From Bacteroidaceae bacterium (GTDB taxonomy: Bacteria > Bacteroidota > Bacteroidia > Bacteroidales > Bacteroidaceae), in NCBI GenBank assembly GCA_017965425.1, contig JAGCPY010000007.1:1-64000 (forward strand): DNA of 64,000 nt. Direction: 5' to 3'. The notes under the pieces are model-generated. The model saw only the letters and a program-made list of their open reading frames with translations. It did not search any database and was not told the DNA's origin. This document shows, one piece after another, positions 20,577-54,569 of the stretch (the stretch's first letter is position 1; each line of letters opens with the position of its first letter). A program made the translations under genes and the position numbers.

Positions 20577-20588
20577 TCAACTCAACTC

Positions 20589-21560: not shown

Positions 21561-21584
21561 AGCAGAGCATCTGTCACTGCACTA

Positions 21585-21777: not shown

Positions 21778-21805
21778 TAGCCTAAAAATCTCAATACTAT
21801 CTTCT

Positions 21806-25684: not shown

Positions 25685-25751
25685 TATTCCCGTGAGGCTC
25701 GTGAGTCCTTATGATTCCATGAGTCTCATGAACCCCATATAACATTTCATT

Positions 25752-27245: not shown

Positions 27246-27354
27246 GAGAGTTGCCACCTTCATCAATAGGTATTCATCATGTTTAACACGACAGCCTTCG
27301 CCCACCAAGGTATGATTTTCCGCTCTATATGGAAGATGAAGGGTGGGAACATTC

Positions 27355-31945: not shown

Positions 31946-32135
31946 CCTCAATCCCTCACCTTCCACTTCATTTTACTGAGAACGAGTCACTTACGCGTGA
32001 GAGATTGGTGAGGAATAGGTGAGGGATGGTGAGGAATTTCCGTATCTCTCACCATCCCTCACCTATTCCTCACCAATCCCTCACCATTAAACGTTTATGC
32101 CTCAATGGGATACGTCTAAAGGTGAGGGATTGAGG
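31946..32135. repeat. Nested CCCTCACC hairpin repeat, copy 2
   Basis: Outer arms CCTCAATCCCTCACC (31946-31960) and its exact complement (32121-32135) enclose an inner 37-base inverted repeat (31997-32033 with 32048-32084, one mismatch, 14-base loop) built of GGTGAGGGATT-type words. The whole could fold as a long stem within a stem. It lies beyond the 3' end of the fasciclin/SusCD operon, so it may also stop that transcript. Together with the 22-bp block it fills most of the 539-base gap; I see no gene here. Confidence 0.8.
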
Positions 32136-32168: not shown

Positions 32169-34388
32169 TTATTTGCCTATTTGCCCTTTCCAGCTGACAA
32201 ACCAATTTCGACGGTCGCTGAGACGGCCCAAGAGCGAAGGCTCGCGACGTGCCACTTTTTCAGCAAGATAGGTGGCATTGCCCTTGCGATAGGCTGCACG
32301 CATGAGGGCGCCGAAGCGGAAACCTTCGAACGGAGTCTCGAGAGCAGACTCGACGTCCAAAAGGCTGTCGAGCACTACGAGTTGACGTTCATGAACCTGT
32401 GGGATGCCGTAGTCGCGATACCAAATGGTGGCAGCTGTCACCCAAGCTTCATAGAGACTGTCGGCAAAAGCTGACAAGTTGGCTTGATATGCGTCCAAGG
32501 CGTTTCCCCATTGCTCGTGATTACTATTGAAGTCCTCCAGTTGCGGGAAGGCATAGCCGGCGGCTTCTGCCAGCACAATCAGCTCAGGATTACTTTCCTG
32601 AATGTTAGCTGCTTTCTGTGCTGCTGTATTGCCCTTTGTCTCCACGAAGAAAGGAGGCTCTTCTGGAAAGCCAGTCCAATCTGCAGGCTGGTCATTCATG
32701 GGGTCATAATAGTAATCGTTGTTGAAGGCTTCGCCGGATCCACGTGCGTGCAATCCCATCTGGTTGATGCCTAATTGTGAAATGAGGTTGGCGTCCTGAG
32801 TTCTGTTGATGGAGGAATAAGTGACTCCGCCAACGGTCGTGATCATGTCGATGCGGGTGCGGTAATAGATGGTGGGGAAGTCGAAATACTCGACGAAAGC
32901 GCTGTCTAAGGCATTGGTACACTGAGGCAGGACGATACCGTTGATGACCGTGTTGTCGAGTCCTGTAGTGAGGATGGCGAGTGCGAACTTGGGGAAGCCG
33001 GCATAGTTCAACGCCTCGGCCATACGGAGATAGACATCGCCACGGCGATAGACAATCACATCCTGCGGATAATATGCCTTGGAAATCATCTGTGACTCGA
33101 AGGTGTTTTGTCCACGCTGAGACATGCTGATGTTGGTGGGCAGACGAAGATCGCCCAGGAAGTGACGCTGGAGCTGTTGTTCGGTCAGCTGTCCGGTTCC
33201 AATCGTGGCATCTGCAAAGCCATCGCCACTGGCATAGACGGCATAGTAGGTCTGGGAGTCACTATAGTCGAAGCAGGCCTGAGAGGGTGAGAAACTTGCT
33301 TCGACTTTTTCGTCTTCGAGGTTGTAGCAGTAGAGATAACGAAGCTCATTGAAATGTCCTTCGCTGGAAGCCGAATCCATGGCGATGGCAGCGATGACCT
33401 CTGAATCCTTTCGGCCAAAAGAACGGGTGGAGAACCAGAGGGAATTAACGCTCAAAGCCAAATTGAAGTTGCCACTCGTGAAACTGCTGAGAGGCCATAC
33501 GCAAGCATCCAAACCTGTCGTGGTCTTCACCTTGTAGCTCTCATTGTTGAGCAAGCCTACATCTGTTGGAATCCAATCGATGTAGTCATAGTAGCACTTG
33601 GCGGCTTCGCGAGCCAGCATGGGATTCTGATGGATGCTGGCGCTCCAGAGGTAGAGGTCGCCCAGAACCAGCTGGATGGGAAGAACGGCCATGCGAGAGG
33701 GCATTTCAGAGTTGTAGCCGATGTAGGCGGGATTGCCATGATAGGGATAGGTGAACCAGGGAACGTATGGCTTCAGGTCGTCGATGAAATAGTCGCAGAG
33801 GCCAACGAGGTCTTTCTTCGGGGCGTTGTCCAATGCTTTATCGGCATCTTCGAGCGAGAGAATGGGCTGCGTCACCAGAGGGATGTTCTCGCCATAGATT
33901 TGCCCCAACTGGAGATATACCCATGCACGAATGGCACGGACGGCGGTGTATTCGGCACGGAAGACATAGAAGTCGGACTTGACGCCATTGGTGAAAGCCG
34001 TCTCGCGGAGGGTCGTGTCGGCGTTTGCCAAGTAGTAGTTGCAGTTGTTGATAACGGCGTAATAGTCGCGCGGATTGTTGTAGGCATTGTCGTCCGTGAC
34101 CTCGAAGTTGGCAATGGCTTTCAGGTCGGCATTGGCATTGAGGTTGACGGTGGTGAGGTCGCCACGCAGTTCGCCAAAAAGGTTTGTGCGGACGGCAATC
34201 TTCTGAAGCTGTGCGAGAATGCCCACGAAGGAGTTGACGGTGTCGTTGCCTTGGGTGAGATGATTCTCGTCGGCATAAAGCATGTCGTCATTGCCCATGT
34301 CAAGCATGTCGTCACAAGACATGATGGCGGTTCCCGCAAGAGCCAGGGTCAGGGCAGGCAAAATATATTTAATGCGTTTCATAATCAT
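32169..34388 (-). CDS. SusD/RagB-family surface lipoprotein, long form
   Basis: A SusD-type ligand-capture lipoprotein that would form the lid on the neighbouring SusC barrel. The lipoprotein signal ends AIMSC (Cys25) followed by DDML, an acidic surface-export-like signal. TPR-like helices with VYLQLGQIYGENIPLV and VLGDLYLWSASIH, and YRRGDVYLRMAEALNYAG near the middle, are typical SusD features. At 739 residues it is well above the usual 500-600, the extra length lying in the C-terminal third. Last gene of the seven-gene minus-strand operon, six bases after its SusC partner. Met3 at 34382 may be the true start. Confidence 0.85.
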   Translation of the reverse strand: MIMKRIKYILPALTLALAGTAIMSCDDMLDMGNDDMLYADENHLTQGNDTVNSFVGILAQLQKIAVRTNLFGELRGDLTTVNLNANADLKAIANFEVTDDNAYNNPRDYYAVINNCNYYLANADTTLRETAFTNGVKSDFYVFRAEYTAVRAIRAWVYLQLGQIYGENIPLVTQPILSLEDADKALDNAPKKDLVGLCDYFIDDLKPYVPWFTYPYHGNPAYIGYNSEMPSRMAVLPIQLVLGDLYLWSASIHQNPMLAREAAKCYYDYIDWIPTDVGLLNNESYKVKTTTGLDACVWPLSSFTSGNFNLALSVNSLWFSTRSFGRKDSEVIAAIAMDSASSEGHFNELRYLYCYNLEDEKVEASFSPSQACFDYSDSQTYYAVYASGDGFADATIGTGQLTEQQLQRHFLGDLRLPTNISMSQRGQNTFESQMISKAYYPQDVIVYRRGDVYLRMAEALNYAGFPKFALAILTTGLDNTVINGIVLPQCTNALDSAFVEYFDFPTIYYRTRIDMITTVGGVTYSSINRTQDANLISQLGINQMGLHARGSGEAFNNDYYYDPMNDQPADWTGFPEEPPFFVETKGNTAAQKAANIQESNPELIVLAEAAGYAFPQLEDFNSNHEQWGNALDAYQANLSAFADSLYEAWVTAATIWYRDYGIPQVHERQLVVLDSLLDVESALETPFEGFRFGALMRAAYRKGNATYLAEKVARREPSLLGRLSDRRNWFVSWKGQIGK

Positions 34389-34394
34389 TATGTA

Positions 34395-37300
34395 TTAGAG
34401 GTTGATCTTTACACCCAGATTAAACGTTCGTCCAGCAGTGAGGAATCCGCGGTCGATGCCCTGAGACATCACGCTGTTGCTCATCGAGAATTCGGGGTCG
34501 AGACCCAGATAGCGGGTGAGGGTGAAGACATTGGTGGCACGTGCCCAGACAGAGATGCCTTGGATATATGTGTTGTTGATGGGCAGCTTGTAGCTGATAG
34601 TCACATTCTTCAGACGAAGGTAGCTGCCATCTTCAATCCAACGGTCACTGAAAGCACTGTTGCCCATCGGATCGCCATAGGTGGCTCGGGGAATGTCTGT
34701 CACTTGTCCTTCATAGCTCCAACGGCTGACGAGTGCTGTGGTCTGATTCATGAAACGTGAACCGGACTCGAGTTGCTGACGCATGTAGTTATATACGTCA
34801 CCACCTAAGCTATAATTGAAGCCGAGGTCGAGGGTCAGGCGTTTGTAGCTGAGGCTGGTCCAGATATTACCATAGGCATCTGGATTGGCATCGCCGATGA
34901 TGGTGCGGTCGTTCGCGTCGATCTTCCCGTCTTGGTTCAAGTCTGCATACTTTACATCACCAGCTGAGAAATAATTACGCGTCACGCCGTCGGCGGCCAG
35001 ACGGTAGAGCCCGTCGGCAGCCGCTTCCTCGGAAGTGGCATAAACACAGGTGCCGCTCTTTGTCTGAGCTGTACTCAAACCATAGAACTGATTGATGGAA
35101 CTGCCAACCTGGCTGCGGATGGTGGCACCGAGCACCTCATGGTCTTCGTAAGCTGCGCCGTCGGGCAACTCTGTCAATGTGTTGACATAGTGACCAACGG
35201 ATGCTCCAACGCTCCAATTCCAGTCGTTGCCGGAAATCAGATGTGCGGTCAGGTTCATGTCGAAGCCTTGGTTCTTGAGCTTGCCTCCATTGCTCCAGTT
35301 CTGTTCAATACCCGACAGGAAATTGAGAGAGCGAAGAGTCAGAAGGTCGCTCGTCCAACTGTGGAAGTAATTGAACCCAACGGCCAGACGGTTATTCAGG
35401 AAACGACCTTCAATACCGGCATTGAAGCGGCGGGTAGTTTCCCACTTGAGCTTGGTGTTGCCAATGTTCTCGAGGCTGAGACCTGGAATCTGCCCAAGGA
35501 ACAGGCTGCTCTTGAAATAGGTGTGAGAAGCATCGAACGGCAGATTGTCATTACCGCTGAGGCCATAACCGGCTACCAACTTCATGTAATCAATGCCATC
35601 GTAGTCGAACCACTCTTCGTTGCTCATGACCCAACCGGCTTGAATGCTGGGGAAGATGCCCCAGACCACTCCGCCAAGCTTGAGGCCACTGGCATCGCGA
35701 CCGAACTGTGAGTTGGTCTCCATAGAGAGGTCGCCTTGCAAATAGTAGCGGTTGGCATAGTTGTATCGTGCCTGACCATACCACGTGAACGTAGCCCAGT
35801 TCTCATGGCTGCCGTCGATTTGTTTTTGGTCGGTGCCAGAGATGAGGGGCGTCTTGTCGTTACCTGTATTGTAACCATTCTGCTGGGTCAGGGAATAGCT
35901 TTCGTTCATGAAGCGGAAGCCACCCAAAAGGTTGATACTGTGTGCATCGTAGCGGTTGTTCCATTCAATCTTCGTATCGGAAAGTACGCTGTTTTGCTTG
36001 GAATAGAGCGAGCCTATCATGTTGTCCATCTTCAGATGGAAGGCCTGTACCCAGAATTGAGGAACGCCGTTCATAGGTACGTAGCGTTTCTCGTTGGTAT
36101 TGACCAAGGAGTAGCTGAACAGAGAACTGAATTTCAGATGCTTGTTGGGATGCCAACTGGGCGTGATGGACAGGTTGACGTAGGAATTATCATAGTAGTT
36201 CTTGTTCTGCGCCGTGCCGTATTCAAGGATGGCGACGGGATTGGCCAACTCATAATTGGAGTTACGCAACTGACTGACCTGTGCCAGATAGTCTTCATCC
36301 TCAATGTCGAGGTGAGCCGTGCTGATGATGCCTGCGCCTTTGTCGGCAGCCACGAAACTATAAGGACTGAGCATGGAAGACTTGGCAAAACTGAGGAAGT
36401 TGAGCGACGTGATGGTGCTTTGGTCATAATCCTCGGGGGCGGCCATGTCATAGAGCTTGCGCGTGGAGTTGCTAAACGAAGCGTCGAAGCGCATGTCAAT
36501 CCAATCGGTAATCTTAATATCTGTATTGAAGCGGACATTCAGACGATTGTAGTTGGCTTCTTTGATGGTTTCGTCAGCATGATTGTAACCAATGGAAAGC
36601 ATGTAGTTCGCCACGTCACCACCACCTTGCACGCTCAGGCCATAGCGTTGGATGATGGCCTGCTGGTAAATCTCATCTGCCCAGTTGGTGTTGTTGGCAT
36701 ACTTGTTATAATAATAGTTGTAGTTATAAGGATCAGCCGGATTGAAAGGCCGCTCATCCAGGAACTTGAAGCTCTGGAGCATGGTGCCTGTGCTCTGTAA
36801 AAGACTGCTGGCGTAGGTCTTGAACTGGGAACCACTCAGCATATTATATGTGCGAGGCATCAGTTCAATGCCCACACTGGCTGTCGCATCAATGCGTGTA
36901 GCCAACGAACGGTTACGTTTGGTTTTGATGAGAATAACGCCATTGGCACCTTTCGCACCGTAGATGGCTGTTCCGTTCTTCATGACCTCAACACTCTCGA
37001 TGTCGTTGACATTGAAGTTTGAAAGCACATCATTGTAGAAGCCCGAGTGAATCATCTCACGACCATACTGCATCTCGGTGATGACTCCGTCGATGACGAT
37101 GAGCGGCTGGGAGTTGACCATATAGCTGTTGACACCATTGACTTGCAAGTAGGCTCCTAAACCCTTGATGCCGCCGCGTTCCACCGCACGGACTTCACCC
37201 CCCAGTCGGTCTTCGACTTCGGAAGCCACGCTGATGGAGTTGGAGTAGTCAAAGCCTGACGCTTTTGCTACGTTCATGATGTTATCATCGTCGCCATAAA

Positions 37301-37682
37301 GGGGGCGGGCAGCCTCGCTTTGCATGACAATCTCACGCAACAAGCCGGATTCATTGAGACCTACACGCACTTTGTTATATCCAGGAATAGTCACTTCCAC
37401 AGCCGAGCTGTAGAGTGGCACCTGAAGGCTGAAGGAACCGTCCTCGGCGGTGAGGGCTGAATATCCTTCGCCAGCAACAGACCGTACGAGCACACCTGCC
37501 AGAGGAGCACGACCTTGCTGGCTCACTACGCGGCCACGAATCGTGCGCGTAGCCTCCGTCTTCTTCACAGTCTTGCGGACATGCTGAACTTCAGCAGCAT
37601 CCTCTTCAACCTCGTCCTGTGCAAAGCTCACTACTGGCCATGCCAAAAACAAGGGGAGACAAATTAAGGCAGCTGTTTTCAT
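34395..37682 (-). CDS. SusC/RagA-family TonB-dependent transporter
   Basis: Outer membrane TonB-linked importer. Signal peptide to SFAQ; carboxypeptidase-regulatory-like domain (about 46-118, IRGRVVSQQGRAPLAGVLV); plug domain (about 140-258) with SQPLIVIDGVI and VEVMKNGTAIYGAKGANGV; then a 22-strand type barrel ending in AGRTFNLGVKINL. The segment before the VIDG box (AYLQVNGVNSYMVNS) departs from the common LRG consensus. Its ATG overlaps the upstream fasciclin gene stop (ATGA), implying translational coupling. Cargo is unknown. Confidence 0.92.
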   Translation of the reverse strand: MKTAALICLPLFLAWPVVSFAQDEVEEDAAEVQHVRKTVKKTEATRTIRGRVVSQQGRAPLAGVLVRSVAGEGYSALTAEDGSFSLQVPLYSSAVEVTIPGYNKVRVGLNESGLLREIVMQSEAARPLYGDDDNIMNVAKASGFDYSNSISVASEVEDRLGGEVRAVERGGIKGLGAYLQVNGVNSYMVNSQPLIVIDGVITEMQYGREMIHSGFYNDVLSNFNVNDIESVEVMKNGTAIYGAKGANGVILIKTKRNRSLATRIDATASVGIELMPRTYNMLSGSQFKTYASSLLQSTGTMLQSFKFLDERPFNPADPYNYNYYYNKYANNTNWADEIYQQAIIQRYGLSVQGGGDVANYMLSIGYNHADETIKEANYNRLNVRFNTDIKITDWIDMRFDASFSNSTRKLYDMAAPEDYDQSTITSLNFLSFAKSSMLSPYSFVAADKGAGIISTAHLDIEDEDYLAQVSQLRNSNYELANPVAILEYGTAQNKNYYDNSYVNLSITPSWHPNKHLKFSSLFSYSLVNTNEKRYVPMNGVPQFWVQAFHLKMDNMIGSLYSKQNSVLSDTKIEWNNRYDAHSINLLGGFRFMNESYSLTQQNGYNTGNDKTPLISGTDQKQIDGSHENWATFTWYGQARYNYANRYYLQGDLSMETNSQFGRDASGLKLGGVVWGIFPSIQAGWVMSNEEWFDYDGIDYMKLVAGYGLSGNDNLPFDASHTYFKSSLFLGQIPGLSLENIGNTKLKWETTRRFNAGIEGRFLNNRLAVGFNYFHSWTSDLLTLRSLNFLSGIEQNWSNGGKLKNQGFDMNLTAHLISGNDWNWSVGASVGHYVNTLTELPDGAAYEDHEVLGATIRSQVGSSINQFYGLSTAQTKSGTCVYATSEEAAADGLYRLAADGVTRNYFSAGDVKYADLNQDGKIDANDRTIIGDANPDAYGNIWTSLSYKRLTLDLGFNYSLGGDVYNYMRQQLESGSRFMNQTTALVSRWSYEGQVTDIPRATYGDPMGNSAFSDRWIEDGSYLRLKNVTISYKLPINNTYIQGISVWARATNVFTLTRYLGLDPEFSMSNSVMSQGIDRGFLTAGRTFNLGVKINL

Positions 37683-39553
37683 TCTATTACGTTGAATTCT
37701 TTGAGATTAGACAAATCGAGTACAAAGTTGTTCGCCTCTTCTTCCGTCGTGAACGGAATGTAGATGAGGCGGTTGATGCGCATGACATTCGTCTGCACAT
37801 AGTTGGTAAGGTCAGGCGTGCGGACATTGGACGTCACACGATAACGCATGACAGGTTCACTGGTTCCTTCCAAATTATAGCCCGACAATTCTGGTTTGCG
37901 TGCGCGGTCGATGCAGATGATATCGATGTCATTACCAGATGTCAGGAAATAACGGCCACCAGACTTGTATTGATCTTGTCCGTCAGGAACATCCAAAGCA
38001 CGCTCCGATGTCGGAGAAGTGAATTCCACGTCATCATTGGGATTGTCGGACACGGATGTGCGTGGCGTAGCCAAACGTTCATTATAATAGACTTGGAAAC
38101 GCGTTGGCAGGACGTCCGTGGATGCCGAAGACATCGAGAAATCGGTGGAGGCGAAAGCCGGAACCGTCACCAAGTAAACATTGTAATAAAGGTTGGAATA
38201 GGTGTTCTGTAAATAGAAATACATGGAACTGTTGGGGTTCGACGTCGAATAAGAAATGGGCTTCATCTCCATGAAACTCTTTTCCTTGAGTTCGCGGAAG
38301 TCGAAGAACTTTCCATTGTAAGTTATGGAATCGCGGATAGACCGAACAGTCACTGACACCTGAGGTTGTGCTGCGGAACCGACCATAATCTGAGGAGTCT
38401 TGCGAACAGCAGGTGATGAAGCAAGGATATAGCGGTTCTCCAAGAACGTGAGCTTGGGATCTATCAACCCTATAGTATCTATCATCACCTGACCATTGGA
38501 GCATGACCACGGCGTCAATCCATGAAGGATGCCACCCTCGTCATAAGGTCTTTTAAATACGTTCAGGCCGTAGTAGTTGGCCGAGTTCCTATGAAGAGTG
38601 TTGCAGATAGAATCCTGAATGCTCTTCTGATCACGAAGGTTGAAGAAGCGACCGCGAATCAGCGCCAACCAAGCATTGTCGGTGGCCAATTGCTCACGAC
38701 CTTCCAACGTGTTCTTATAGTTGAAGTACGTTTTATATACAGGCAATTCGCGAGCCACCAAAGAGTCACTCGGAGCAAGGAAAAGGTACAGACTGTCTTC
38801 TCTGTTGATCCAGCCAAAGAGCCTGTACAACTGATTCGAAAGCGTCAGGACAGAGTCGGCATAGACAATCTTGCCATCCACGATTCCTCGCTGTACGGAC
38901 GCCGACTCATCCAAGTTGTATTCGTCTGCCTTACGAAACATATTCTGATACAGGGAACGCAGCTGACCGTTCAAGTCAACAAATTCGCGGACATTAGGCA
39001 TGAACTGCTGCTTCCCATCGAGTTTGTAAAGGATGCCGTTACAGCCAACGATGTTCTTTGCGGTAAAAGGAATGCCATTCAGTTGGTTCTCCTGAAGCAA
39101 CATATACTTGCCATTCATCATGCAGATAGAATCTTTTATTCCTGCATAGACAGAACGTCCGAAAAGGGCTATATGGTTCTGAACAAACTGTGTAATGGCC
39201 TTGTTGTCCTTGTCCTGAATATATCGCATGCTGCTGTCAGGCATCATGATGAGTGACACTTTCTGCTCATCATATAAAGCGATGATGCTGTCTGCTTCAG
39301 CTTCCGTGAGTCTTGGCGCCCATACAGTCAATGACTGCGGTGAGCCCAACACCTTGTCATAGCCGATATGTTCTATTACGCGGCAGAACTGATTGAGTTG
39401 GTTATCGGCCTTGATTAACTCATACAACGTAGGTCCGTCACCCACGTTCCCTTCATAGTGCTTGTCCCATTCATCGGAACATGAAGTAACCGTTATTGCC
39501 GAGACAGCCAGAAGGGTTGCTACTGATAATGTAATATAATGAGATGTTTTCAT
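37679..39553 (-). CDS. Fasciclin (FAS1)-domain lipoprotein, 624 aa
   Basis: Lipoprotein signal ending TVTSC (Cys25) with SDEWD after it, a surface-export-like signal. Two FAS1-like regions follow: about 40-185 (LYELIKADNQLNQFCRVIEH, then LTVWAPRLTEAEADSII) and about 195-370 (LYLFLAPSDSLVA, NGILYKLDG-like closing strands). Residues about 375-600 are beta-rich without a recognised domain (VSVTVRSIRDSITYNGKFF, YLQNTYSNLYYNVYLV). FAS1 domains mediate adhesion or ligand binding in many kingdoms. Here it is translationally coupled to SusC, in the place where polysaccharide loci carry a surface glycan-binding protein, so an accessory ligand-binding role is likely. Confidence 0.82.
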   Translation of the reverse strand: MKTSHYITLSVATLLAVSAITVTSCSDEWDKHYEGNVGDGPTLYELIKADNQLNQFCRVIEHIGYDKVLGSPQSLTVWAPRLTEAEADSIIALYDEQKVSLIMMPDSSMRYIQDKDNKAITQFVQNHIALFGRSVYAGIKDSICMMNGKYMLLQENQLNGIPFTAKNIVGCNGILYKLDGKQQFMPNVREFVDLNGQLRSLYQNMFRKADEYNLDESASVQRGIVDGKIVYADSVLTLSNQLYRLFGWINREDSLYLFLAPSDSLVARELPVYKTYFNYKNTLEGREQLATDNAWLALIRGRFFNLRDQKSIQDSICNTLHRNSANYYGLNVFKRPYDEGGILHGLTPWSCSNGQVMIDTIGLIDPKLTFLENRYILASSPAVRKTPQIMVGSAAQPQVSVTVRSIRDSITYNGKFFDFRELKEKSFMEMKPISYSTSNPNSSMYFYLQNTYSNLYYNVYLVTVPAFASTDFSMSSASTDVLPTRFQVYYNERLATPRTSVSDNPNDDVEFTSPTSERALDVPDGQDQYKSGGRYFLTSGNDIDIICIDRARKPELSGYNLEGTSEPVMRYRVTSNVRTPDLTNYVQTNVMRINRLIYIPFTTEEEANNFVLDLSNLKEFNVIE

Positions 39554-39593
39554 ACGTTGAATCTTTCAAAGATTGAAAAGATGATGTCGGGAT

Positions 39594-41741: not shown

Positions 41742-41756
41742 AACAATTAGTATTGA

Positions 41757-43565
41757 TTAATTCATTTCATACTCTTCACCACCTTCTTTAGAATAGATTG
41801 CTTTCTGGTGGAGTAAGGTGTCAACTTTCAGCTCATCCTTATTGTAAGGCCAATATAGAGATTCCATACTGCTAAAGCGGTTGGCTCCACTTTCACTGGA
41901 GAGTTTGCCAGGAACAGTGGCACGCACAACATCTGGTTGACCATCACGTCTTGCATAGCGAACCAAGTCGAACCAACGTTTTCCTTCATACATAAGTTCT
42001 CGATTTCGCTCCTCACGAAGCAGTTTCTGCATCGTACCGCGATTCTTGTAGGAATTGAATGAGAGATCTTTACTTGGGTTGACCAAAGAACGATAATGGA
42101 CAAGGTAAATCAAATCAAAAGCTTGATGTAACAGTTCGGTGTTCTCAGGCGTGTCTTCGTCCGTTGTCTTCATCAAGAGAGCTTCGGCTTCCATCAGCAT
42201 GACATCTGTCAAACGATAGAAAATCCAATTGCGGTTCATGTATCCAGGCAACAAGAAAGCACTTGCACTATAGTTGTTGTAAGGAACGGTGGATGCTGTG
42301 GAACCAGAATTCTGCTGAATATTGAACGTTGAGGCAACACCTTTTCTTACGAAACCTTCACCATATTGATCATCCGTCGCCCTGAAACTGTTGTAAAAGC
42401 GAACATCATACTCATGGATGAAATATGAGAAAGACTTGTCCTTTACTTCAGAAACCATTGAAGGATTCACAGCAAGGAAGCCAATTCCGGAATTAGGTTT
42501 CAAGCCACCAATCTCTTGTGTAATACCAGCTCCATAAAGACGGCCTAACGCTGTACTCATCACATAGTTTGTGTTTGAAGACGTGTAGTTATAGCTTAAC
42601 TCGAAAACACTTTCAAAGCTATTACCAATTCCGAAGATGGCATCAAATGAATTGGACAGGTCAGATACAGTATTTACGTACAAAGGTACGGTGCGTCCGA
42701 ATCGTCCTGTTACCTCTTGAGGACCCGAATTCCTCATAGAGGTACTGTTGCTAAACTGTTCCTTATAATCCTTACGTTTCTGTGCGATGATTTCTTCTGC
42801 ACATTCAATGGTCTTATCATAGTTACCCTGCCATAAATACATGTCAGCCAACATGGCAGTAATGGATGTACGAGTGATGCGATTGCAAGAACTATTATAG
42901 TTCTTCCCTACTCCATCATTGTCGGATGTTGCATAATGTACCAAAGCATCATTCTTGACACTTTCAAGGTCTTTAATGATTTCACCAAGTATGTAATCAA
43001 AACTGGAAGCAGGCAAATAAAGAACCTCGCTTTCCTGCTGGATGGCTTCTCTGTAGAAAGGTACAGCTTCAAAGGCACGGATGAGGTAGAAGTAGCACAA
43101 AGAACGAAGAGCTGTCATTTCTGCAATGGTTGCTTTGACATCGCTATCACGATAAGAGGGGTCTTTAGCACTGACCTCTGAAGCCATGCGAATCACGGAA
43201 TTACATTTGTCAATGACATGGTAGAAGTCCACCCAACGGGTGTAGGAATTGGTGGACAACAGGTTTTCGCGAAGGATCTGATAAAGATCATAGCTTCCTG
43301 ATTCCACGTAGGGGCCAGGGAAAAGGTTGTCGCTTCTGACTTCTCCCCAAACGATACACCTGCTAATGAAAGCTTCGCTTTGCATAGCAGTATAGCATCC
43401 TGCGACAAACTGATCAATGTCGGTGCGCTCGTTCCAGAAGTTGTCCTCTGTCACGATGTCACGCGGCTTGATGTTCAGGAAATCACTACAACTAACGAGC
43501 GTCATACCCAGTAAAATCGTCAGTGCAATGTTTCTCAAATATTGAAATATAATATACTGTCTCAT
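41757..43565 (-). CDS. SusD/RagB-family surface lipoprotein
   Basis: Canonical SusD/RagB protein of 602 residues: lipoprotein signal ending TLVSC (Cys26) then SDFLNIKPRDIVTEDNFW, the classic SusD N-terminal motif; TPR helices (RSLCYFYLIRAFEAVPFYRE, AMLADMYLWQGNYDKTIE); and the C-terminal LREERNRELMYEGKRWFDLV signature. It pairs with the SusC gene 21 bases upstream. The TonB-dependent pair would bind and import an oligomeric ligand. Confidence 0.92.
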   Translation of the reverse strand: MRQYIIFQYLRNIALTILLGMTLVSCSDFLNIKPRDIVTEDNFWNERTDIDQFVAGCYTAMQSEAFISRCIVWGEVRSDNLFPGPYVESGSYDLYQILRENLLSTNSYTRWVDFYHVIDKCNSVIRMASEVSAKDPSYRDSDVKATIAEMTALRSLCYFYLIRAFEAVPFYREAIQQESEVLYLPASSFDYILGEIIKDLESVKNDALVHYATSDNDGVGKNYNSSCNRITRTSITAMLADMYLWQGNYDKTIECAEEIIAQKRKDYKEQFSNSTSMRNSGPQEVTGRFGRTVPLYVNTVSDLSNSFDAIFGIGNSFESVFELSYNYTSSNTNYVMSTALGRLYGAGITQEIGGLKPNSGIGFLAVNPSMVSEVKDKSFSYFIHEYDVRFYNSFRATDDQYGEGFVRKGVASTFNIQQNSGSTASTVPYNNYSASAFLLPGYMNRNWIFYRLTDVMLMEAEALLMKTTDEDTPENTELLHQAFDLIYLVHYRSLVNPSKDLSFNSYKNRGTMQKLLREERNRELMYEGKRWFDLVRYARRDGQPDVVRATVPGKLSSESGANRFSSMESLYWPYNKDELKVDTLLHQKAIYSKEGGEEYEMN

Positions 43566-43586
43566 AACGAAATCATGCTTTGAAGA

Positions 43587-46500
43587 TTAGAAACCAATGG
43601 TCACACCTACGGTATAAGACTTGGAGCGCGGTGTCTTGGAACTATCTGTTGTCACGCCGTAACCTCCATAGCCGATTTCCGGATCCACACCCGTGTATTT
43701 GGTAAGGCAAAAGAGGTTGTTGGCACTGGCATAGAAATTCAAAGTCTTCATGTGAAGGTTCTTAAGTTTCTTAGGATCGAAACTGTAGTTAAGTTGCAAA
43801 TAGTTCAGACGCAAGAAGGAACCATCCTCAACAAAGCGGTCGCTGATGAGGGTGTTGTAGTTCGTTCCATTGCCAAACATCGCACGTGGGATAGACGTGA
43901 CATCGCCCTCCTTACGCCAACGGTAATTGACCGCCTGACTTTGGTTGTTGTTGCTGACCATCGCTTCCATATCAAGACGAGCCATGTTGACGATGTCATA
44001 GTCGATGCGGTAGTTGAAGTTGGCACGCAAAGCCCAACGGTCATAGTGGAGTGTGAAACCGAAACCACCCGTAAGTCGTGGCAGAGAGTTACCGAGGTAA
44101 ACGATGTCGAGCTGGTTGATGTTGCCATCGTGATTGATGTCTTCATAGATGGCATCACCACCTTTAAAATAATAACCGCTGTTCGTTTCCGTCTTATAAG
44201 CAAAGCGCATCTGTATGGGGTCGCCTTCACCATTGAGAACTACCTTTCCATCGGCATTGAGGGCAACAGGATAGGTCACGCCTGCGTTAATTCTGTCTTG
44301 CAAGATGGTTGTACCGTTTTCTGCATCCGCTCTGGCGAGTTCACGCGCGGTATCATATTGGTATTGGTAAACACCCTTATAACGGAAGCCGTAAATGGAA
44401 CCGAATGGGTTGTCAATCTGAACACGCTGTACCGTATTCCTGTTGCCTTCTGACCAGTCCCGATTCAATGCTTTGAGGATTAACGGATCCATTTTGGTAA
44501 TGACGTTACGGTTGTTTGCAAAGTTTACGTATAAGTCTGCTGAAAACTTTCCCTTCTTGAACAAGCGGTCGCCCATGACCTGCACCTCCCATCCATCGTT
44601 GCGCATGTCGCCGACATTGGCATAGGCCAGGCCACCCCATCCGTTAGACGTCGGAATGCCGGCATTATTCATCAACATATCCTTGGTGTCACGACGGTAG
44701 AGGTCAACCACAAATTTCAGACGGTCATCAAAGAAATAGAGGTCAATACCAAGGTTATAGGTATAGATGTTTTCCCACTTCAGCTCGGTCAACTTCAAAC
44801 CACTGGGGTTCATCGACACCTGGTTCAGATAACGAGTACCTTGTGAATAGCGATTCATGTAGAGGTAGTCGGTATTGGGGGCATTACCCACGCGTCCCCA
44901 TCCTGGACGGAGAGAGAACATACTGACTTTCGCCTTCTCACGAACAGCTTTCATCCACGGCTCGTCGATGACGTTCCAACGACCAGAGACAGCAGGGAAA
45001 AAGCCCCAGCGGCTATTCGGGCCGAACTTGGTGGTGGCATCGACACGCATGGAGAAGTCGAACATGTATCGACTTTTGTAGCTGTAGTGGGTGGAGAAGG
45101 TATAATAGAGCGAACGCCATTCATTGAATCCGCTACCCATACCAGAGACAAAACCACCAGCCGTTACACTTTCCAGCCGAGAAGGCAAACGATAGATGTT
45201 GGTACTCTGACTGCTGGAACTGCCACTGACAAGCTGGAAACGCCCGAGTGCCATCAAGAAATGGTCTTCATTCTTGAAGTGAGGCTGGAAGGTCAGCGTG
45301 TGTGTCGTCGTGAAAGCAAGGTTCTTTCGACTGGAACTAGCCGCTCGTCCGTTTTCGTGGTAGTTGGTGGAAAGCAGTGAACGTGGATAGCTTGAATCGG
45401 CATAGTCATTATAGACATTCATGACCACTCGACCGTTATAGCGAAGTTGCGTCTTGCTGTCATCCAGTCCCAAGAGTTTGTATTCCAGTTCCAATTCAGG
45501 CGTGATGTCGTACGTTGTCTGGACATTAGTAGCTATGTTCGCGCTAGCAATGGGATTCACCAAATCTCGCTGGTCGTCAAAGTTCTTGCTTTGTCCGTCA
45601 GTCAGTCGTCCGTGGTTGGTGAAAGCATATCGTGGAACGATGTAATACTCACCCGTGTTATACTCTTGCCCATAGGCGTCATATTCATAACGATAAGGCG
45701 AGAGATTCGGCATCTTCATGTAGGCGATACCGAGCAAACCATCGGCGTTTCGGTTGTTCTTTGTGTAAGTGAGCGCAAAGTTGGAAATAATCTTGATGCG
45801 GTCATTGACATAGTAGTCAAGTGCCATACGTGTGGAGAGTCGGTCGAGCTTCTGCTTGATGATAGTTCCCGTCTCATGGTCATAACCTGCACCTATGCGG
45901 AAGAGCGTTTTCTCGTCACCGCCGGATATGCTAATGTAGTGGTTTTGGCGCAAGCCGTTCTGCTTGACTAGATCTACCCAATTCGTGTTTTTGTTGAACA
46001 TCAGGAATTCAGAATCATTCTCATCGTAGTTCAACTCTTTCACATCGCCAACGTATGTATTCTGCTGTGGATTGAAATAGCTTTCCTTGAGCAGCATGGT
46101 GTATTGGTCACCTGTGAGCAAATCAATACCGTCAGGCTGGTGGGTCATGGTCATTTTCAAAGAATAGTTTACTTGCGGAGCACCACGAGTACCACGTTTT
46201 GTTGTAATCTCTATCACACCGTTGGCACCTTGTGAACCCCAGATGGCCGTGGCAGCAGCATCCTTCAGGACTTTAATGTCTGCGATGTCCTCGGTATTGA
46301 CATTCAGCAACTGTGCAAACTTCTCTTCGTTGGCGGTAGCAGAGTCAAAGTCACTCAAGTCAACGTTCCACACATTGCCGTTCACAACGATGAGGGGTTC
46401 GTTTGACGTGAGCGTAGATACAGTAGAAGCACCACGCAGACGCATACTCGTTCCAGCTCCAAGGTCGCCCGAATTGGCCACGATGTCCAAACCGGCAATA

Positions 46501-46961
46501 CGTCCTTGCAGAGCCTCGTCAACGGACGTGATGCCCAGTCCCTCAAATTCCTTGGCCGAGATGCCCTGAGCGGAGAAGCTGACCTCACGTTCTGGAATTT
46601 CCAAACCCGAAGTCTTCATCTTCTTTTTGGCTGTAACGACCACTTCTTTGATTTGCTTGGTGTTGTCTTGCATCACGACCTTGAAGACATTCTTGTTGAT
46701 GGGTAGTTCCTGTGTCTTATACCCCATGTAGCTAATGCGCAACTTGTTTTTGGGGCTCTTGACAGGCAGAACGAAATTACCATTCATGTCCGTGATGGTA
46801 GCATTCACAATACGGTTGGAGGCATCTACCTCCGTCACACTGGCACCTGGCAGCACGTCAATTTCGTCACTAACAGTACCGCTGATGCGTGTGATCTGAG
46901 CCCCAGCAAGTGCTGACACAAGTAAGAGGCTGCATAGCATGAAATATCTCAATGTTTTCAT
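43587..46961 (-). CDS. SusC/RagA-family TonB-dependent transporter
   Basis: Signal peptide (MKTLRYFMLCSLLLVSALAG), carboxypeptidase-regulatory-like domain (about 24-98, RISGTVSDEIDVLPGASV), plug domain (about 125-255) with LRGASTVSTLTSNEPLIVVN and IKVLKDAAATAIWGSQGANG, and a large barrel ending SKSYTVGVTIGF. All are standard for SusC. The start overlaps the stop of the 988-residue fasciclin gene by four bases (ATGA), the same coupling as in the second pair of this operon. Confidence 0.93.
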   Translation of the reverse strand: MKTLRYFMLCSLLLVSALAGAQITRISGTVSDEIDVLPGASVTEVDASNRIVNATITDMNGNFVLPVKSPKNKLRISYMGYKTQELPINKNVFKVVMQDNTKQIKEVVVTAKKKMKTSGLEIPEREVSFSAQGISAKEFEGLGITSVDEALQGRIAGLDIVANSGDLGAGTSMRLRGASTVSTLTSNEPLIVVNGNVWNVDLSDFDSATANEEKFAQLLNVNTEDIADIKVLKDAAATAIWGSQGANGVIEITTKRGTRGAPQVNYSLKMTMTHQPDGIDLLTGDQYTMLLKESYFNPQQNTYVGDVKELNYDENDSEFLMFNKNTNWVDLVKQNGLRQNHYISISGGDEKTLFRIGAGYDHETGTIIKQKLDRLSTRMALDYYVNDRIKIISNFALTYTKNNRNADGLLGIAYMKMPNLSPYRYEYDAYGQEYNTGEYYIVPRYAFTNHGRLTDGQSKNFDDQRDLVNPIASANIATNVQTTYDITPELELEYKLLGLDDSKTQLRYNGRVVMNVYNDYADSSYPRSLLSTNYHENGRAASSSRKNLAFTTTHTLTFQPHFKNEDHFLMALGRFQLVSGSSSSQSTNIYRLPSRLESVTAGGFVSGMGSGFNEWRSLYYTFSTHYSYKSRYMFDFSMRVDATTKFGPNSRWGFFPAVSGRWNVIDEPWMKAVREKAKVSMFSLRPGWGRVGNAPNTDYLYMNRYSQGTRYLNQVSMNPSGLKLTELKWENIYTYNLGIDLYFFDDRLKFVVDLYRRDTKDMLMNNAGIPTSNGWGGLAYANVGDMRNDGWEVQVMGDRLFKKGKFSADLYVNFANNRNVITKMDPLILKALNRDWSEGNRNTVQRVQIDNPFGSIYGFRYKGVYQYQYDTARELARADAENGTTILQDRINAGVTYPVALNADGKVVLNGEGDPIQMRFAYKTETNSGYYFKGGDAIYEDINHDGNINQLDIVYLGNSLPRLTGGFGFTLHYDRWALRANFNYRIDYDIVNMARLDMEAMVSNNNQSQAVNYRWRKEGDVTSIPRAMFGNGTNYNTLISDRFVEDGSFLRLNYLQLNYSFDPKKLKNLHMKTLNFYASANNLFCLTKYTGVDPEIGYGGYGVTTDSSKTPRSKSYTVGVTIGF

Positions 46962-49924
46962 CTTCTCTTAGATACAGGGTTAGGTTGACGTGAATTGGCC
47001 CAGTCTTCCAACCATTCTGGTGTCGTTGGTTGTGGGAAGTCCTTTGGCAGGAATTGGAAAGTCGGATTCTCAGGATCATCGTCATCTGGATTATCGTCAT
47101 ACACCAGAGGTCTGTCAATTTGATGGATGACGACATAGGAAGAACTGAAGATTTGACGTGTAGAACCTTGCTCGGAACCTCCGAACAGATATTGTCGTCC
47201 CATCAGGTTACTATTGTCACCCGCGATGACATTTGCCGCCGTTTTACCAGCCTGATCAGTCACACGAATGGCACCCGCTTGGTTGTCAACCGTTAATCTG
47301 CGGAAACGCATCGTGGTCGTGTCGATTGCAGCCGTCTCATGCATTTCACCATTCACTTTTTCTCCACCCAGATAGACAGATCCGTCTTGGATGTGATAGC
47401 GAAGGAAGTTGCTGATGACGTTCCTGATTTCATTCTTCGCTGTATAGATGGAAAGCAGAAGGCTGTCTGCACGTGCTTCCAACGCCTCCACCTCTGCGAT
47501 CGCAGCTTCATAGGCATCGCTCGTCAGCTGATTGTTCTTCAGTTGTGATTCAATGTCGCCCAGACGAACCTTCAAGTCTGAATAATAGTCATCCAGCAAA
47601 TCTTGAATCTCCTGCCAGGCATCGAGTGTCCGACCTGTGGGCAGCCATCCCTTGTTGACAAGGCCCTCAATGGCCTCGTTCGTAGGAACATAAATCGTAT
47701 AATGATAGTTACCCATTGTCTTGAAGGCGAAGTCCATTGTAGGGTGTCCGTCCACATTGGTGTCTATCATGCCCAAACTGTCGGTGTTGACCAACAAATC
47801 CACGAAAGCAGAGAAGTCGGGGTGAGCCACGCTGTCACGCAAGATTGAATAGGGACTCATGTAGGTGCTGATGGGAATGCTGTCCAGCACATAGGAAACA
47901 CCGTTACCTGACTCGCGCTGGTCGAACGTCGTTTCCTCAGAGACAGGAATCCACCAGCCTTTGGATGCATGATAGGAACCGGCAATGCCCGTCACCTTGT
48001 CACCTTCGAAACGCACCTTGATGGGTCCGCCTGCCTTGTTCAGGTAGATCTCCTGGTCAGGATGGAAGGTCTGTACGCCACGGAGGCCGTGCACGATAAT
48101 CAGATTATCCAACAGGTCTTGCAAACGGTTGTTCACCAATCCTAAGCCGCCAGCAGAAGCCGTAGCCGCCGGTTGTACTGTTGCCGGCTTATCTGTCACC
48201 ACCATAGCGCCGCCGGTCGTATCCACAGACATGGCCTGTGCACGAACAGGGAAAATCGTGTTTTCGCCATCGAGATAATAGCGGTAGGCAATGGGCTTCT
48301 TTTCATATAATGAATAAGGATCAATGCAGTTGAAGCCTTCAGGGCTGGATGCGAAAGCAGCATCTTTCGGGAGCATAAGCGTATAGGTGCTACCCATTGA
48401 ATTGACATAGGCACGGTACTCATTCAGCGTCCAGTAATACTGCTCATAATTCGAGTCGTAGCGTTTATCTGCAATCATCTGGTGCATGATGGCCAAGTCT
48501 TCATCTGAGCGCAATACTGCAGGGAAGAACACGGATTGGTGTTCTGGAGCCACAAAGACTTTACCCAACTGGTACACCACGCCGTTGCAGGCCATGAAAC
48601 AACGTTCAACGTCACCCGGAACAATGCCCATGTCTTCAGCTGCCGTATTCTTGACCGAGCCGAACTTGCTCGGTGTTGAACTTGTGAAGCTGTTCTGCAT
48701 ACAGTTGTTCAAGAAAGGTAATACCACGTCATCCGGCACGTTACGCCAGTCATAGCCATATTTGGCACCGATGGCAGCACCTTCGCCATGAAGATATTCC
48801 TCCATCCACTCGTTGGTCGGAACCAACATAGCACCACCGTCGTTCTGGAAGGTAATATCGGTGTTACCCGTTTGAGGGCGATATCGGTTCCATCCCGGAT
48901 CCATCGCAAGCGTTGTAGATACCACGCGACCTGTTTCCGATATCTTGTTCAGGGCATTGTCTTTATGGCCTTGGTTAAAATAACGCTTCACGAACAAAGA
49001 ATCACGCTTCCCGTCCATCACCTGTACTGTCCACAATTCAGGATAGCTGAAACGGTCCAACAGTTCACTGAAAATTGACATCTGAGGTTCACGGTGGATA
49101 ATTTCGGCCATGTTCGGCAATTGCTCAGGAACCTCCTCCAACACATGAATGTAACCATTCTGGCAAGTCACATCCTTCTCAACTACTTTCAGTCCATTGA
49201 TATAAGCAGAATTACCTACGTCCGAGGATTTACCGTTCGACAACTTCATGAGGTCTTCGCTTGTCAGATCATTCTTGGTCATGAAATCCGGAAGGAAATG
49301 CACCATCGGAGTCGAATAGTTATCCTTAAATATCTTGATGCTCGCGCGATCGCGGACAGCGCTCCAATAGTCAATCTGCTCACCCGTCGTCTTGTCCACG
49401 CGAGCAGGATTTAGCTTCGGAAACTCGCTTGCCATCATCACGGGGATAGAATCCAGGACATCCACACGTGAAGCACGTCGCAGACACGCGCCCTCGGTAG
49501 GAGGATCACCTGGCAAGTTGCTTAGCAACTCTATCAGATAGGCATTGTTGATCATCGCCCCTTTCAGGAGATTCTTCTTCTCCGATTTGGGCAGTTGCTT
49601 CACACTGGTGAAACCTCGCTTGCTCAAGTAGCGGTTCCACGCGTCGTCGTCAGCTACGAACATCGTCATGCTGCCTGTTCGGCTCAGCATCTCACGATAG
49701 TTCGCATCTGCGAGGTCTGGGTCGTTGATGAGATCCAGCGTCTGCTGGAAATTTCCACGATTCTCCAGTTCCTCGTAAACGCTGCTTCCCAACCACGACG
49801 GCATACCTGTCAATAATTCATCTTGACACGATGAAAAGACAAGCGTACCGCCCAGCAGCACGAAAGCAGCACAAGCACAACTTGCGCCTCGCACAAGTCT
49901 TCGCTTTGCAATACTGTTATTCAT
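46958..49924 (-). CDS. Large multi-fasciclin lipoprotein with coiled-coil insertion, 988 aa
   Basis: First gene of the seven-gene operon. Lipoprotein signal with Cys33 (VFSSCQDEL). Four FAS1-type boxes can be picked out: MTMFVADDDAWNRYL (86-100), AMLVPTNEWMEEYL (365-378), YTLMLPKDAAF (514-524) and YTIYVPTNEAIEGL (742-755), so three or four FAS1 domains are likely, the third being divergent. The last domain is interrupted by a helical, probably coiled-coil segment (about 768-835; SQLKNNQLTSDAYEAAIAEV). The C-terminus is Asp/Pro-rich (DDNPDDDDPENPTF). It is translationally coupled to the SusC below. A function in surface capture or adhesion is inferred from domains and context only. Confidence 0.82.
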   Translation of the reverse strand: MNNSIAKRRLVRGASCACAAFVLLGGTLVFSSCQDELLTGMPSWLGSSVYEELENRGNFQQTLDLINDPDLADANYREMLSRTGSMTMFVADDDAWNRYLSKRGFTSVKQLPKSEKKNLLKGAMINNAYLIELLSNLPGDPPTEGACLRRASRVDVLDSIPVMMASEFPKLNPARVDKTTGEQIDYWSAVRDRASIKIFKDNYSTPMVHFLPDFMTKNDLTSEDLMKLSNGKSSDVGNSAYINGLKVVEKDVTCQNGYIHVLEEVPEQLPNMAEIIHREPQMSIFSELLDRFSYPELWTVQVMDGKRDSLFVKRYFNQGHKDNALNKISETGRVVSTTLAMDPGWNRYRPQTGNTDITFQNDGGAMLVPTNEWMEEYLHGEGAAIGAKYGYDWRNVPDDVVLPFLNNCMQNSFTSSTPSKFGSVKNTAAEDMGIVPGDVERCFMACNGVVYQLGKVFVAPEHQSVFFPAVLRSDEDLAIMHQMIADKRYDSNYEQYYWTLNEYRAYVNSMGSTYTLMLPKDAAFASSPEGFNCIDPYSLYEKKPIAYRYYLDGENTIFPVRAQAMSVDTTGGAMVVTDKPATVQPAATASAGGLGLVNNRLQDLLDNLIIVHGLRGVQTFHPDQEIYLNKAGGPIKVRFEGDKVTGIAGSYHASKGWWIPVSEETTFDQRESGNGVSYVLDSIPISTYMSPYSILRDSVAHPDFSAFVDLLVNTDSLGMIDTNVDGHPTMDFAFKTMGNYHYTIYVPTNEAIEGLVNKGWLPTGRTLDAWQEIQDLLDDYYSDLKVRLGDIESQLKNNQLTSDAYEAAIAEVEALEARADSLLLSIYTAKNEIRNVISNFLRYHIQDGSVYLGGEKVNGEMHETAAIDTTTMRFRRLTVDNQAGAIRVTDQAGKTAANVIAGDNSNLMGRQYLFGGSEQGSTRQIFSSSYVVIHQIDRPLVYDDNPDDDDPENPTFQFLPKDFPQPTTPEWLEDWANSRQPNPVSKRR

Positions 49925-50209: not shown

Positions 50210-50419
50210 CCTCAATCCCTCACCTTTTTAGGTAATCGTCTGAAAGAAACAGGTTTGCAGGTGAGGAATTGGTGAGGGATAGGTGAGGGATGGTGAGGGA
50301 TTGCATTTTTTTCAGCTTCAGGACTCAATCCCTCACAATCCTCCACCAATCCCTCACCAAAATCTCACCCGTAATGCATTGTTTCACAAATCAATGGCTA
50401 AAAAGGTGAGGGATTGAGG
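50210..50419. repeat. Nested CCCTCACC hairpin repeat, copy 3
   Basis: Same plan as copy 2: outer arms CCTCAATCCCTCACC (50210-50224) and its exact complement (50405-50419); inner arms 50260-50302 and 50327-50369 pair imperfectly around a 24-base loop. The 22-bp block lies on the right here, so the composite is in the opposite orientation to copy 2. Confidence 0.8.
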
Positions 50420-51487: not shown

Positions 51488-52264
51488 ATGAACCGAGAAA
51501 TTGACTTGAGCGTCAGCGCTTACGGCATCACTCGTCCACTCGAGTATGATTTAGCCATCCTGCCATGGGGCGCTACGGAACCACACAACCTCCATCTCCC
51601 CTACCTCACCGATGCCATCCTCTCCCACGACGTGGCCGTTGATGCCGCTCAGATGGCATTAGAGCAATATGGAGTGCGCGCGATGGTGCTGCCATCTGTC
51701 ATGATGGGTGCCCAGAATCCTGGCCAGCGAGACCTGAAATTCTGCATCCATTACCGCTATGAGACACAGCGTGCCATCCTTACAGACATCGTCGCCTCAT
51801 TGCATCATCAAGGGTTACGAAAGCTATTGATTGTCAATGGTCACGGAGGCAATTCCTTCAAGAGCATGATTCGTGACCTCGCCGTGGATTATCCAGATTT
51901 CATCCTCCTTTCAAGTGAATGGTACACCGTCCTTCCTGGAAAAGATTGGTTTGACGCTCCTGGCGACCATGCCGATGAACTGGAGACCTCTGTCATGATG
52001 CACTACCACCCTGAACTGGTACGCCTTGAAGAAGCAGGCTCTGGCGATGCCCGTCCGTTCGCATTGCAAAGTCTGCTCGAGAAAGTGGCTTGGCTGCCAA
52101 GGCATTGGACGAAGGTGACCGACGACACGGGCATTGGCAATCCCCGTCTCGCGACTGCCGAAAAGGGTCATCGCTTTGCCGAAGCCGTTGCCAGGAAATA
52201 TGCCTTCCTGCTGAAAGAACTGGCCTCTGTCAAGGACGCAGACGACATGTATGAACGGTCATAA
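51488..52264 (+). CDS. Creatininase-family amidohydrolase
   Basis: The creatininase/FAPy-deformylase fold is a dinuclear metal amidohydrolase. Metal ligands typical of the family are visible: Glu31 and His33 in WGATEPHNLHLP, Asp42 in LTDAI, His119 in VNGHGGN, and Glu in DHADELETS. The length of 258 is normal. Substrates in the family range from creatinine to N-formyl and pterin-like amides; this protein's substrate is not evident. Its stop is two bases before the likely start of the UvrA-like gene, so the two are probably co-translated. Confidence 0.85.
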   Translation: MNREIDLSVSAYGITRPLEYDLAILPWGATEPHNLHLPYLTDAILSHDVAVDAAQMALEQYGVRAMVLPSVMMGAQNPGQRDLKFCIHYRYETQRAILTDIVASLHHQGLRKLLIVNGHGGNSFKSMIRDLAVDYPDFILLSSEWYTVLPGKDWFDAPGDHADELETSVMMHYHPELVRLEEAGSGDARPFALQSLLEKVAWLPRHWTKVTDDTGIGNPRLATAEKGHRFAEAVARKYAFLLKELASVKDADDMYERS

Positions 52265-52265
52265 A

Positions 52266-54542: not shown

Positions 54543-54569
54543 ACCCCCCCATTATATACTTACATTTTC

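What the first reader, a model, noticed from the sequence alone, without database searches (positions are those of the whole stretch)
32169..49924. Enzyme-free seven-gene operon: three fasciclin lipoproteins with two SusC/SusD pairs
Gene order (transcribed right to left) is FAS1(988)-SusC-SusD-FAS1(715)-FAS1(624)-SusC-SusD, with gaps of 40 bases or less and the same ATGA stop/start overlap between a fasciclin gene and the SusC after it, twice. Polysaccharide loci normally bring hydrolases, lyases or peptidases and a regulator; none is recognisable here or next to it. The fasciclin proteins stand where glycan-binding surface proteins usually are. Inference: a surface capture/import system for a ligand that needs no local depolymerisation, or one working with enzymes encoded elsewhere.
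Basis: partly seen in the sequence, partly recalled or inferred. Interest (0 to 1): 0.75.

Follow-up and report, generated by a model that had tools for sequence, protein, structure and literature searches.

The report
Conserved fasciclin-SusCD glycan import cassette
Rumen and gut Bacteroidales carry a seven-gene surface import cassette made of fasciclin-type binding lipoproteins and two SusC/SusD pairs, here without enzymes beside it, that most likely takes up plant cell-wall (pectin or arabinogalactan) fragments cut by enzymes encoded elsewhere in the genome.

Summary
In detail: seven genes on the minus strand at 32169-49924, gaps of 40 bp or less, two ATGA overlaps. It is no chance assembly. 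Of 80 named relatives, 66 hold all seven genes in order, 12 are colinear but incomplete, and 2 are solo genes. The window's SusC1 falls in a 52-row group, 30 of them beside panB/ileS; few of its flanks show an enzyme (L075, L077, L072), though not all were annotated. F715 and F624 are modelled as FAS1 domains followed by a CBM35/MiXBM-like sandwich, not an enzyme. Related cassettes in Prevotella/Xylanibacter have GH51, PL11, GH43, GH30-like, GH95, esterase or HExxH/DUF6055 genes alongside. In the host genus the cassette tracks PL11 (19/19 genomes with it, 4/18 without) and DUF6055 (19/19, 6/18); incomplete MAGs and relatedness weaken this. Best reading: a portable double-SusCD capture/import module for pectic or arabinogalactan fragments, served here in trans. 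The ligand is inferred. Open-access searches found no description of this layout.

The parts
46958..49924 (-). F988: FAS1-repeat lipoprotein, first gene of the operon; C-terminal part not modelled
   Evidence: Pfam Fasciclin 2.2e-18, three stretches; Cys33 invariant in 21 rows; profile similarity to the F715 N-terminus, hhalign 96.8%
43587..46961 (-). SusC1, TonB-linked outer-membrane transporter
   Evidence: TIGR04056 687.6 bits; Plug and CarbopepD_reg_2
41757..43565 (-). SusD1 surface lipoprotein
   Evidence: SusD_RagB 1.4e-22
39594..41741 (-). F715: lipoprotein modelled as FAS1-FAS1-CBM-like
37679..39553 (-). F624: lipoprotein modelled as FAS1-FAS1-CBM35/MiXBM-like; FAS1 not seen by Pfam
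34395..37682 (-). SusC2, TonB-linked outer-membrane transporter, 23% identical to SusC1
   Evidence: TIGR04056 565.2 bits
32169..34388 (-). SusD2 surface lipoprotein, divergent
   Evidence: sub-cutoff Pfam SusD; family profile hits solved SusD chains; Cys25 invariant in 21 rows
50216..50413 (.). cluster of GGTGAGGGA/TCCCTCACC dispersed repeats upstream of the operon (not specific to it)
31952..32129 (.). cluster of the same dispersed repeats downstream of the operon (not specific to it)

Best explanation
The locus is a complete, self-standing outer-membrane capture-and-import module. Three surface lipoproteins built from FAS1 domains (two of them with a C-terminal carbohydrate-binding-module-like sandwich) act as surface glycan-binding proteins. 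They hand ligand to two diverged SusC/SusD transporters, which import it in a TonB-driven way. The ligand is most likely a fragment of plant cell-wall rhamnogalacturonan-I side chains or arabinogalactan (arabinan/AG, perhaps still on protein). Depolymerising enzymes are encoded elsewhere in this genome, whereas in many related cassettes of Prevotella/Xylanibacter they sit next to the cassette. Shown: gene content, conserved order, predicted folds, linkage of relatives to enzymes, genome co-occurrence. Inferred: surface location, joint complex, different specificities of the two pairs, ligand, in-trans partnership.
For: Conserved seven-gene order: 66 complete of 80, 12 colinear but incomplete, 2 solo. 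Four-base overlaps at 43/68 F988-SusC1 and 21/75 F624-SusC2 junctions. CBM-like C-termini in F715 and F624. Invariant Cys with a conserved Asp two positions on (that this marks surface export is recalled). Of ten cassettes in four genomes with up to 20 kb flanks, eight have a predicted degradative gene within 250 bp on the same strand: GH51 at 29 and at 8 bp, PL11 at 240 bp, GH43 at 91 and 214 bp, GH30-like at 62 bp, Glyco_hydro_cc at 42 bp, an esterase at 60 bp, and an HEGIH-motif protein at 19 bp (motif only). The own genome's second cassette on C80 has Glyco_hydro_cc (about 750 bp) and GH43 genes upstream. Own genome: PL11 matches on contigs C22, C26, C37, C39, C47 and C88, 25 GH43 matches, 4 GH51-type (ASD1) matches and 2 DUF6055 matches; no PL11 or DUF6055 on the cassette contig. 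Across 37 genus genomes cassette vs PL11 19/19 against 4/18 (p 5e-7), DUF6055 19/19 against 6/18 (p 1e-5), comparison family GH10 17/19 against 10/18 (p 0.03). On an rpoB tree of 19 of them the cassette label needs 5 changes, at least 3 by supported branches.
Against: No binding, growth or expression data. Linked genes are diverse (pectin backbone, arabinan, fucosidase, esterase, peptidase-like), so paralogous cassettes may differ in ligand and do not fix the window's ligand. The nearest sister group is linked mainly to DUF6055 (HExxH), not pectinases. In the window's own group the few degradative neighbours seen are DUF6055 (L075, 278 bp) and GH5 (L077, 246 bp; L072, below the Pfam cut-off, 904 bp), not pectinases. 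The Fisher p-values ignore relatedness, and even GH10 differs (p 0.03). Genomes are mostly incomplete MAGs, so absences are weak; G034 has 6 PL11 matches and no cassette found. The CBM-like match is a common fold. Two of ten wide-flanked cassettes have no degradative gene within 250 bp. A GH43 match does lie on the cassette contig, about 100 kb away (C78:151347).
Confidence: 0.48

Rival explanations
1. Glycoprotein or peptide import: the cassette captures and imports peptides or glycopeptides released by secreted HExxH metallopeptidases (DUF6055/M106-like and a second HExxH family), not pectic glycans.
For: In the nearest sister group 14 of 21 SusC rows are beside genes of the DUF6055 cluster (three of them scanned with Pfam, the rest placed by BLAST clustering; HE(L/I/V)GH motif), and a roughly 690-770-aa HEGIH protein lies upstream in several of the same loci. 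L075, in the window's own group, has DUF6055 278 bp upstream. DUF6055 tracks the cassette in the genus, 19/19 against 6/18. A fungal DUF6055 protein was assigned to MEROPS M106 (PMC11241649, one passage read).
Against: F715 and F624 end in CBM-like domains. More distant cassettes are linked to GH51, PL11, GH43, GH30-like and GH95 genes. PL11 tracks the cassette at least as well.
Confidence: 0.23
2. Adhesion first: the FAS1 lipoproteins mainly attach the cell to plant fibre, and the SusC/SusD pairs are general importers co-transcribed with them.
For: FAS1 is a known adhesion fold (recalled; top structural hits are TGFBIp and periostin). F715-like genes occur alone, without SusC/SusD, up to about 20 matches per genome in some relatives.
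Against: Strict co-conservation with two SusC/SusD pairs and recurring 4-bp overlaps.
Confidence: 0.12
3. Import of a ready-made small ligand (cofactor, siderophore-like compound or oligosaccharide released by other microbes) that needs no depolymerisation by the cell.
For: 30 of 52 SusC rows in the window's group sit beside panB/ileS, and few of the flanks seen there show an enzyme.
Against: Relatives of the same cassette are enzyme-linked, and the host genus shows PL11 co-occurrence.
Confidence: 0.08

Closest known systems
Polysaccharide utilization loci (SusC/SusD-based PULs)
   Same: SusC/SusD pairs with extra surface lipoproteins in one operon; related cassettes have linked CAZymes and, in four loci, a two-component-propeller gene (one scanned with Pfam, three by BLAST cluster)
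   Different: No enzyme or regulator next to the window locus; three FAS1 proteins; fixed double-SusCD layout
Xylan PUL with tandem susC/D (B. xylanisolvens PUL 43; passages of PMC4855328 read)
   Same: two tandem susC/D pairs; a second locus whose enzymes are co-regulated with it
   Different: No FAS1 protein in the passages seen; PUL 43 has 12 GH genes in the locus
FAS1 protein in a Gramella cellulose/hemicellulose-like PUL (PMC4891872, section 19 with the Fig. 6 legend read)
   Same: a FAS1 domain protein drawn in a SusD-containing PUL
   Different: described with GH5/GH9/GH26 enzymes; no triple-FAS1 double-SusCD cassette in the text seen (figures are not held)
Solved FAS1 proteins (TGFBIp, periostin, stabilin-2) and CBM35/MiXBM modules
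   Same: predicted folds of the N- and C-terminal parts of F715 and F624
   Different: FAS1 and a CBM-like domain together in one lipoprotein; low identity (4-24% in the lists)

Membership tests
SusC/SusD-based PUL | adjacent susC and susD homologues | tested here: met
SusC/SusD-based PUL | depolymerising enzyme(s) in the locus | tested here: not met
   none in or next to 32169-49924; met in many related cassettes
SusC/SusD-based PUL | linked regulator | tested here: not met
   no regulator among the adjacent genes scanned; a Reg_prop gene lies near four relatives' loci
Surface glycan-binding protein (SGBP) | surface lipoprotein that binds the glycan | tested here: inconclusive
   conserved lipobox Cys and CBM-like fold; binding and surface location not tested
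FAS1 (fasciclin) domain proteins | FAS1 domain by profile or fold | tested here: met
   Pfam for F988 and F715; fold only for F624
Tandem-susCD xylan PUL | xylanase or other xylan enzymes linked to the two SusC/D pairs | tested here: not met
   none next to the operon; the own genome's one GH10 match is on contig C88
Pectin/RG-I utilisation system | binds or is induced by RG-I/arabinan/AG | not testable with these tools
   only linkage and co-occurrence

The most novel reading that the evidence does not exclude
The three FAS1 lipoproteins and two different SusC/SusD pairs form one obligate 'double utilisome': F988 is a scaffold, and the FAS1-FAS1-CBM proteins bridge the two transporters. It is a new standard assembly that Bacteroidales copied and re-aimed by swapping neighbouring enzymes, with arabinogalactan proteins (including plant fasciclin-like ones) as the original target.
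Probability: 0.15. Interest if true: 0.82.

Novelty: new variant of a known kind. Interest (0 to 1): 0.6.

Why it matters
It points to a widespread class of import cassette in rumen and gut Bacteroidales whose surface binders are FAS1-CBM-like lipoproteins and which keeps a fixed double-SusCD layout whether or not enzymes are attached. Substrate prediction from neighbouring CAZymes would miss or mis-assign members like this one. It also makes a testable case that binding/import genes and depolymerase genes can be kept apart in the genome.

Tried and rejected
Enzyme hidden in the C-termini: not supported for F715 and F624, where the best matches are CBM-type modules. The second FAS1 of each protein rests on multi-domain hits with high rmsd (7.5-11) and is less well tested.

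Chance adjacency: rejected. Recent tandem duplication of the two pairs: rejected, SusC1 and SusC2 are 23% identical. Mobile cassette bracketed by its own repeats: the TCCCTCACC clusters flank the operon, but the paired motif occurs 207+200 times in the genome (0 in the reversed control), so it is a general dispersed repeat.

SusC census per genome: inconclusive, only 11 candidates per genome were scored. Bacteroides-type promoter pattern: no match upstream of F988. Rfam: three tRNAs only. A script count of acidic residues after the lipobox picked wrong cysteines in many rows; the alignment columns are used instead.

Literature: seven searches on fasciclin/FAS1 with SusC/SusD, Prevotella, Bacteroidetes, PUL or TonB-dependent listed no paper on such a cassette. 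Passages read: PMC10199937 (FAS1 gene highly transcribed in a Urechidicola symbiont that also has SusCD pairs, adhesion proposed), PMC2668756, PMC7661554, PMC12008871, PMC11784079 (S. copri PULs, no 'fasciclin'); for PMC4891872 the abstract and section 19. Other listed papers were seen as listings only. Open-access library only.

Weak points: the 80 named loci are the best 80 of 299 confirmed, and several are the same genomes as unnamed G handles. Only 16 of the 80 were followed into whole genomes; wide flanks were fetched for ten cassettes in four genomes chosen by me. The rpoB tree holds 19 of 37 genus genomes: 6 of the 25 searched had no hit and 12 were not searched. G014 has a solo F715 homologue and was counted as cassette-negative. 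Of the 18 loci not complete at first, L091, L092 and L100 were complete (hidden by antisense ORFs) and L108 has all genes with F715 in two frames; L082 and L084 are solo; the other 12 are cut at a contig end, and L113 also has a short F988 piece and split F624. In one search context labels come from short, unequal flanks (about 2 kb upstream), the root is the midpoint, and two long rows (L222, L225) are unsafely placed. PanB and IleS were checked by Pfam on one gene each (the second as a class I tRNA synthetase, the name IleS being recalled), the rest by BLAST cluster.

Full report
OBSERVATION. Gaps in order of transcription are -4, 21, 15, 40, -4 and 6 bp. Pfam and NCBIfam confirm FAS1 in F988 and F715, both SusCs and SusD1. 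SusD2 scores below the Pfam cut-off, but its family profile hits solved SusD chains. F624 has no Pfam hit; its fold decides the matter (below). Neighbours are an aminotransferase and AMP-binding enzyme downstream and a CN-hydrolase upstream. An alpha-amylase-family gene (11941-13722) and a GH25 gene (56899-58017) are farther off.

CONSERVATION. A search of 61 genomes with F715 found orthologues in the host genus. Eighteen relatives' loci show the same order: 14 with all seven genes full-length in the ORF list, three cut by contig ends, and one (L048) with its last gene hidden by an antisense ORF (the same region is complete as L092). A scan of named genomes confirmed 299 relatives and kept the best 80: Bacteroidaceae/Prevotellaceae/Bacteroidales MAGs, many labelled rumen, omasum, colon or faeces, plus the isolate Xylanibacter rodentium PROD (one contig, L100, is labelled Clostridium). 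Of the 80, 62 were complete in a first pass; a second pass on the other 18 raised this to 66, with 12 colinear but incomplete and 2 solo F715 genes. The 4-bp overlaps recur in 43 of 68 F988-SusC1 and 21 of 75 F624-SusC2 junctions. The two SusCs are 23% identical, so the double pair is not a recent duplication.

FAMILY OF CASSETTES. The same genome has a second, eight-gene cassette (two F715 genes) on contig C80, with Glyco_hydro_cc and GH43 genes upstream on the same strand. Sixteen genomes followed up hold 2-14 Fasciclin matches each. Twenty cassette regions were then fetched, some of them cores of cassettes already seen. In one search, 17 of the 20 show all seven gene types or the order cut by the stretch's end (L216, L223 and L226 with two F715 genes), L217 lacks a visible F624 (an antisense ORF sits there), L225 has an unclassified protein in that place, and L215 holds only a solo F715. 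Other relatives (for example G006) carry many solo F715-like genes without SusC/SusD.

TREE AND CONTEXT. On a 92-row SusC1 tree (midpoint root, quick method) the window lies in a 52-row group; 30 of its rows show panB upstream and/or ileS downstream, one change on the tree. Its flanks were not fully annotated: those seen are short, and a check of ten genes near these loci found one PanB and one class I tRNA synthetase, but also DUF6055 278 bp upstream in L075, GH5 246 bp upstream in L077, a GH5-like gene (below cut-off) 904 bp upstream in L072, and an FGE-sulfatase-type gene 270 bp downstream in L062. So the group is largely, not wholly, without enzyme neighbours. The sister 21-row group has 14 rows with genes of the DUF6055 cluster downstream and three with GH51-related labels. 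In ten cassettes of four genomes examined with up to 20 kb flanks, eight have a same-strand predicted degradative gene within 250 bp: GH51 (29 and 8 bp), PL11 (240 bp), GH43 (91 and 214 bp), GH30-like (62 bp), Glyco_hydro_cc (42 bp), esterase (60 bp), HEGIH-motif protein (19 bp, motif only; no Pfam family in the one relative scanned). The other two (G061 C34, G067 C6) have none within 250 bp. Outside these ten, GH95 lies 109 bp upstream of L222's cassette and an esterase, then PL11, downstream of L210's. Members of the DUF6055 cluster longer than 140 aa keep HExxH. One paper assigns a fungal DUF6055 protein to MEROPS M106 while calling that family poorly described (PMC11241649, one passage read).

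CO-OCCURRENCE. In 37 genus genomes (19 with cassette) PL11 is present in 19/19 with and 4/18 without (G013, G022, G027, G034), p 5e-7; DUF6055 in 19/19 and 6/18, p 1e-5; the comparison family GH10 in 17/19 and 10/18, p 0.03. These p-values ignore relatedness. An rpoB tree of 19 of the genomes needs 5 changes of the cassette label (at least 3 forced by supported branches), so the pattern is not one event. MAG incompleteness weakens every absence. In the own genome PL11 lies on contigs C22, C26, C37, C39, C47 and C88 and DUF6055 on C21 and C32, not on the cassette contig C78; one GH43 match is on C78, about 100 kb away.

MECHANISM. Most likely the FAS1(-CBM) lipoproteins capture, and two SusC/SusD pairs import, fragments of plant pectic side chains or arabinogalactan, with depolymerases acting in trans here and in cis in many related cassettes. 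The glycan class is inferred from linkage and co-occurrence. A glycoprotein/peptide ligand is the main rival, because the closest sister group is linked to HExxH proteins.

NOVELTY. Tandem susC/D pairs (PMC4855328, passages) and a FAS1 gene in a PUL (PMC4891872, section 19) are known. Ten open-access searches were made, seven of them on FAS1/fasciclin; none listed a description of this cassette. It is a new variant of SusCD import loci, not a new kind.

Noticed in passing
window 18250-28464 (+): DASS/CitMHS-type symporter, APS kinase, CysD, a DUF4011 helicase-like gene, CysN and a Sulfotransfer_3 gene in a row: resembles the B. thetaiotaomicron BT_0412-BT_0416 sulfate/PAPS/cholesterol-sulfotransferase cluster (PMC9417993, passages), with the helicase-like gene between CysD and CysN.
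   Followed up: partly
window 31952-32129, 50216-50413, 62569-62643, 63426-63510: Clusters of TCCCTCACC/GGTGAGGGA, 19 in the window against 0.3 expected; the paired motif has 207+200 matches genome-wide and 0 in the reversed control. A large dispersed repeat family of unknown role.
   Followed up: partly
L134-L149 (G006), L152, L153: Solo F715-like genes without SusC/SusD, next to varied proteins; up to about 20 matches per genome.
   Followed up: partly
L107, L111, L114, L116, L119, L120, L124, L126, L128, L130 (upstream of F988): A large protein (about 690-770 aa where least cut) with a VHEGIH HExxH motif just upstream of the cassette; no Pfam family in the one scanned (L107). Possible undescribed metallopeptidase family.
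   Followed up: partly
window 51488-55334 (+): Creatininase-like gene, a large ABC ATPase gene and a ThiF-family gene in a row, upstream of the operon on the other strand.
   Followed up: no
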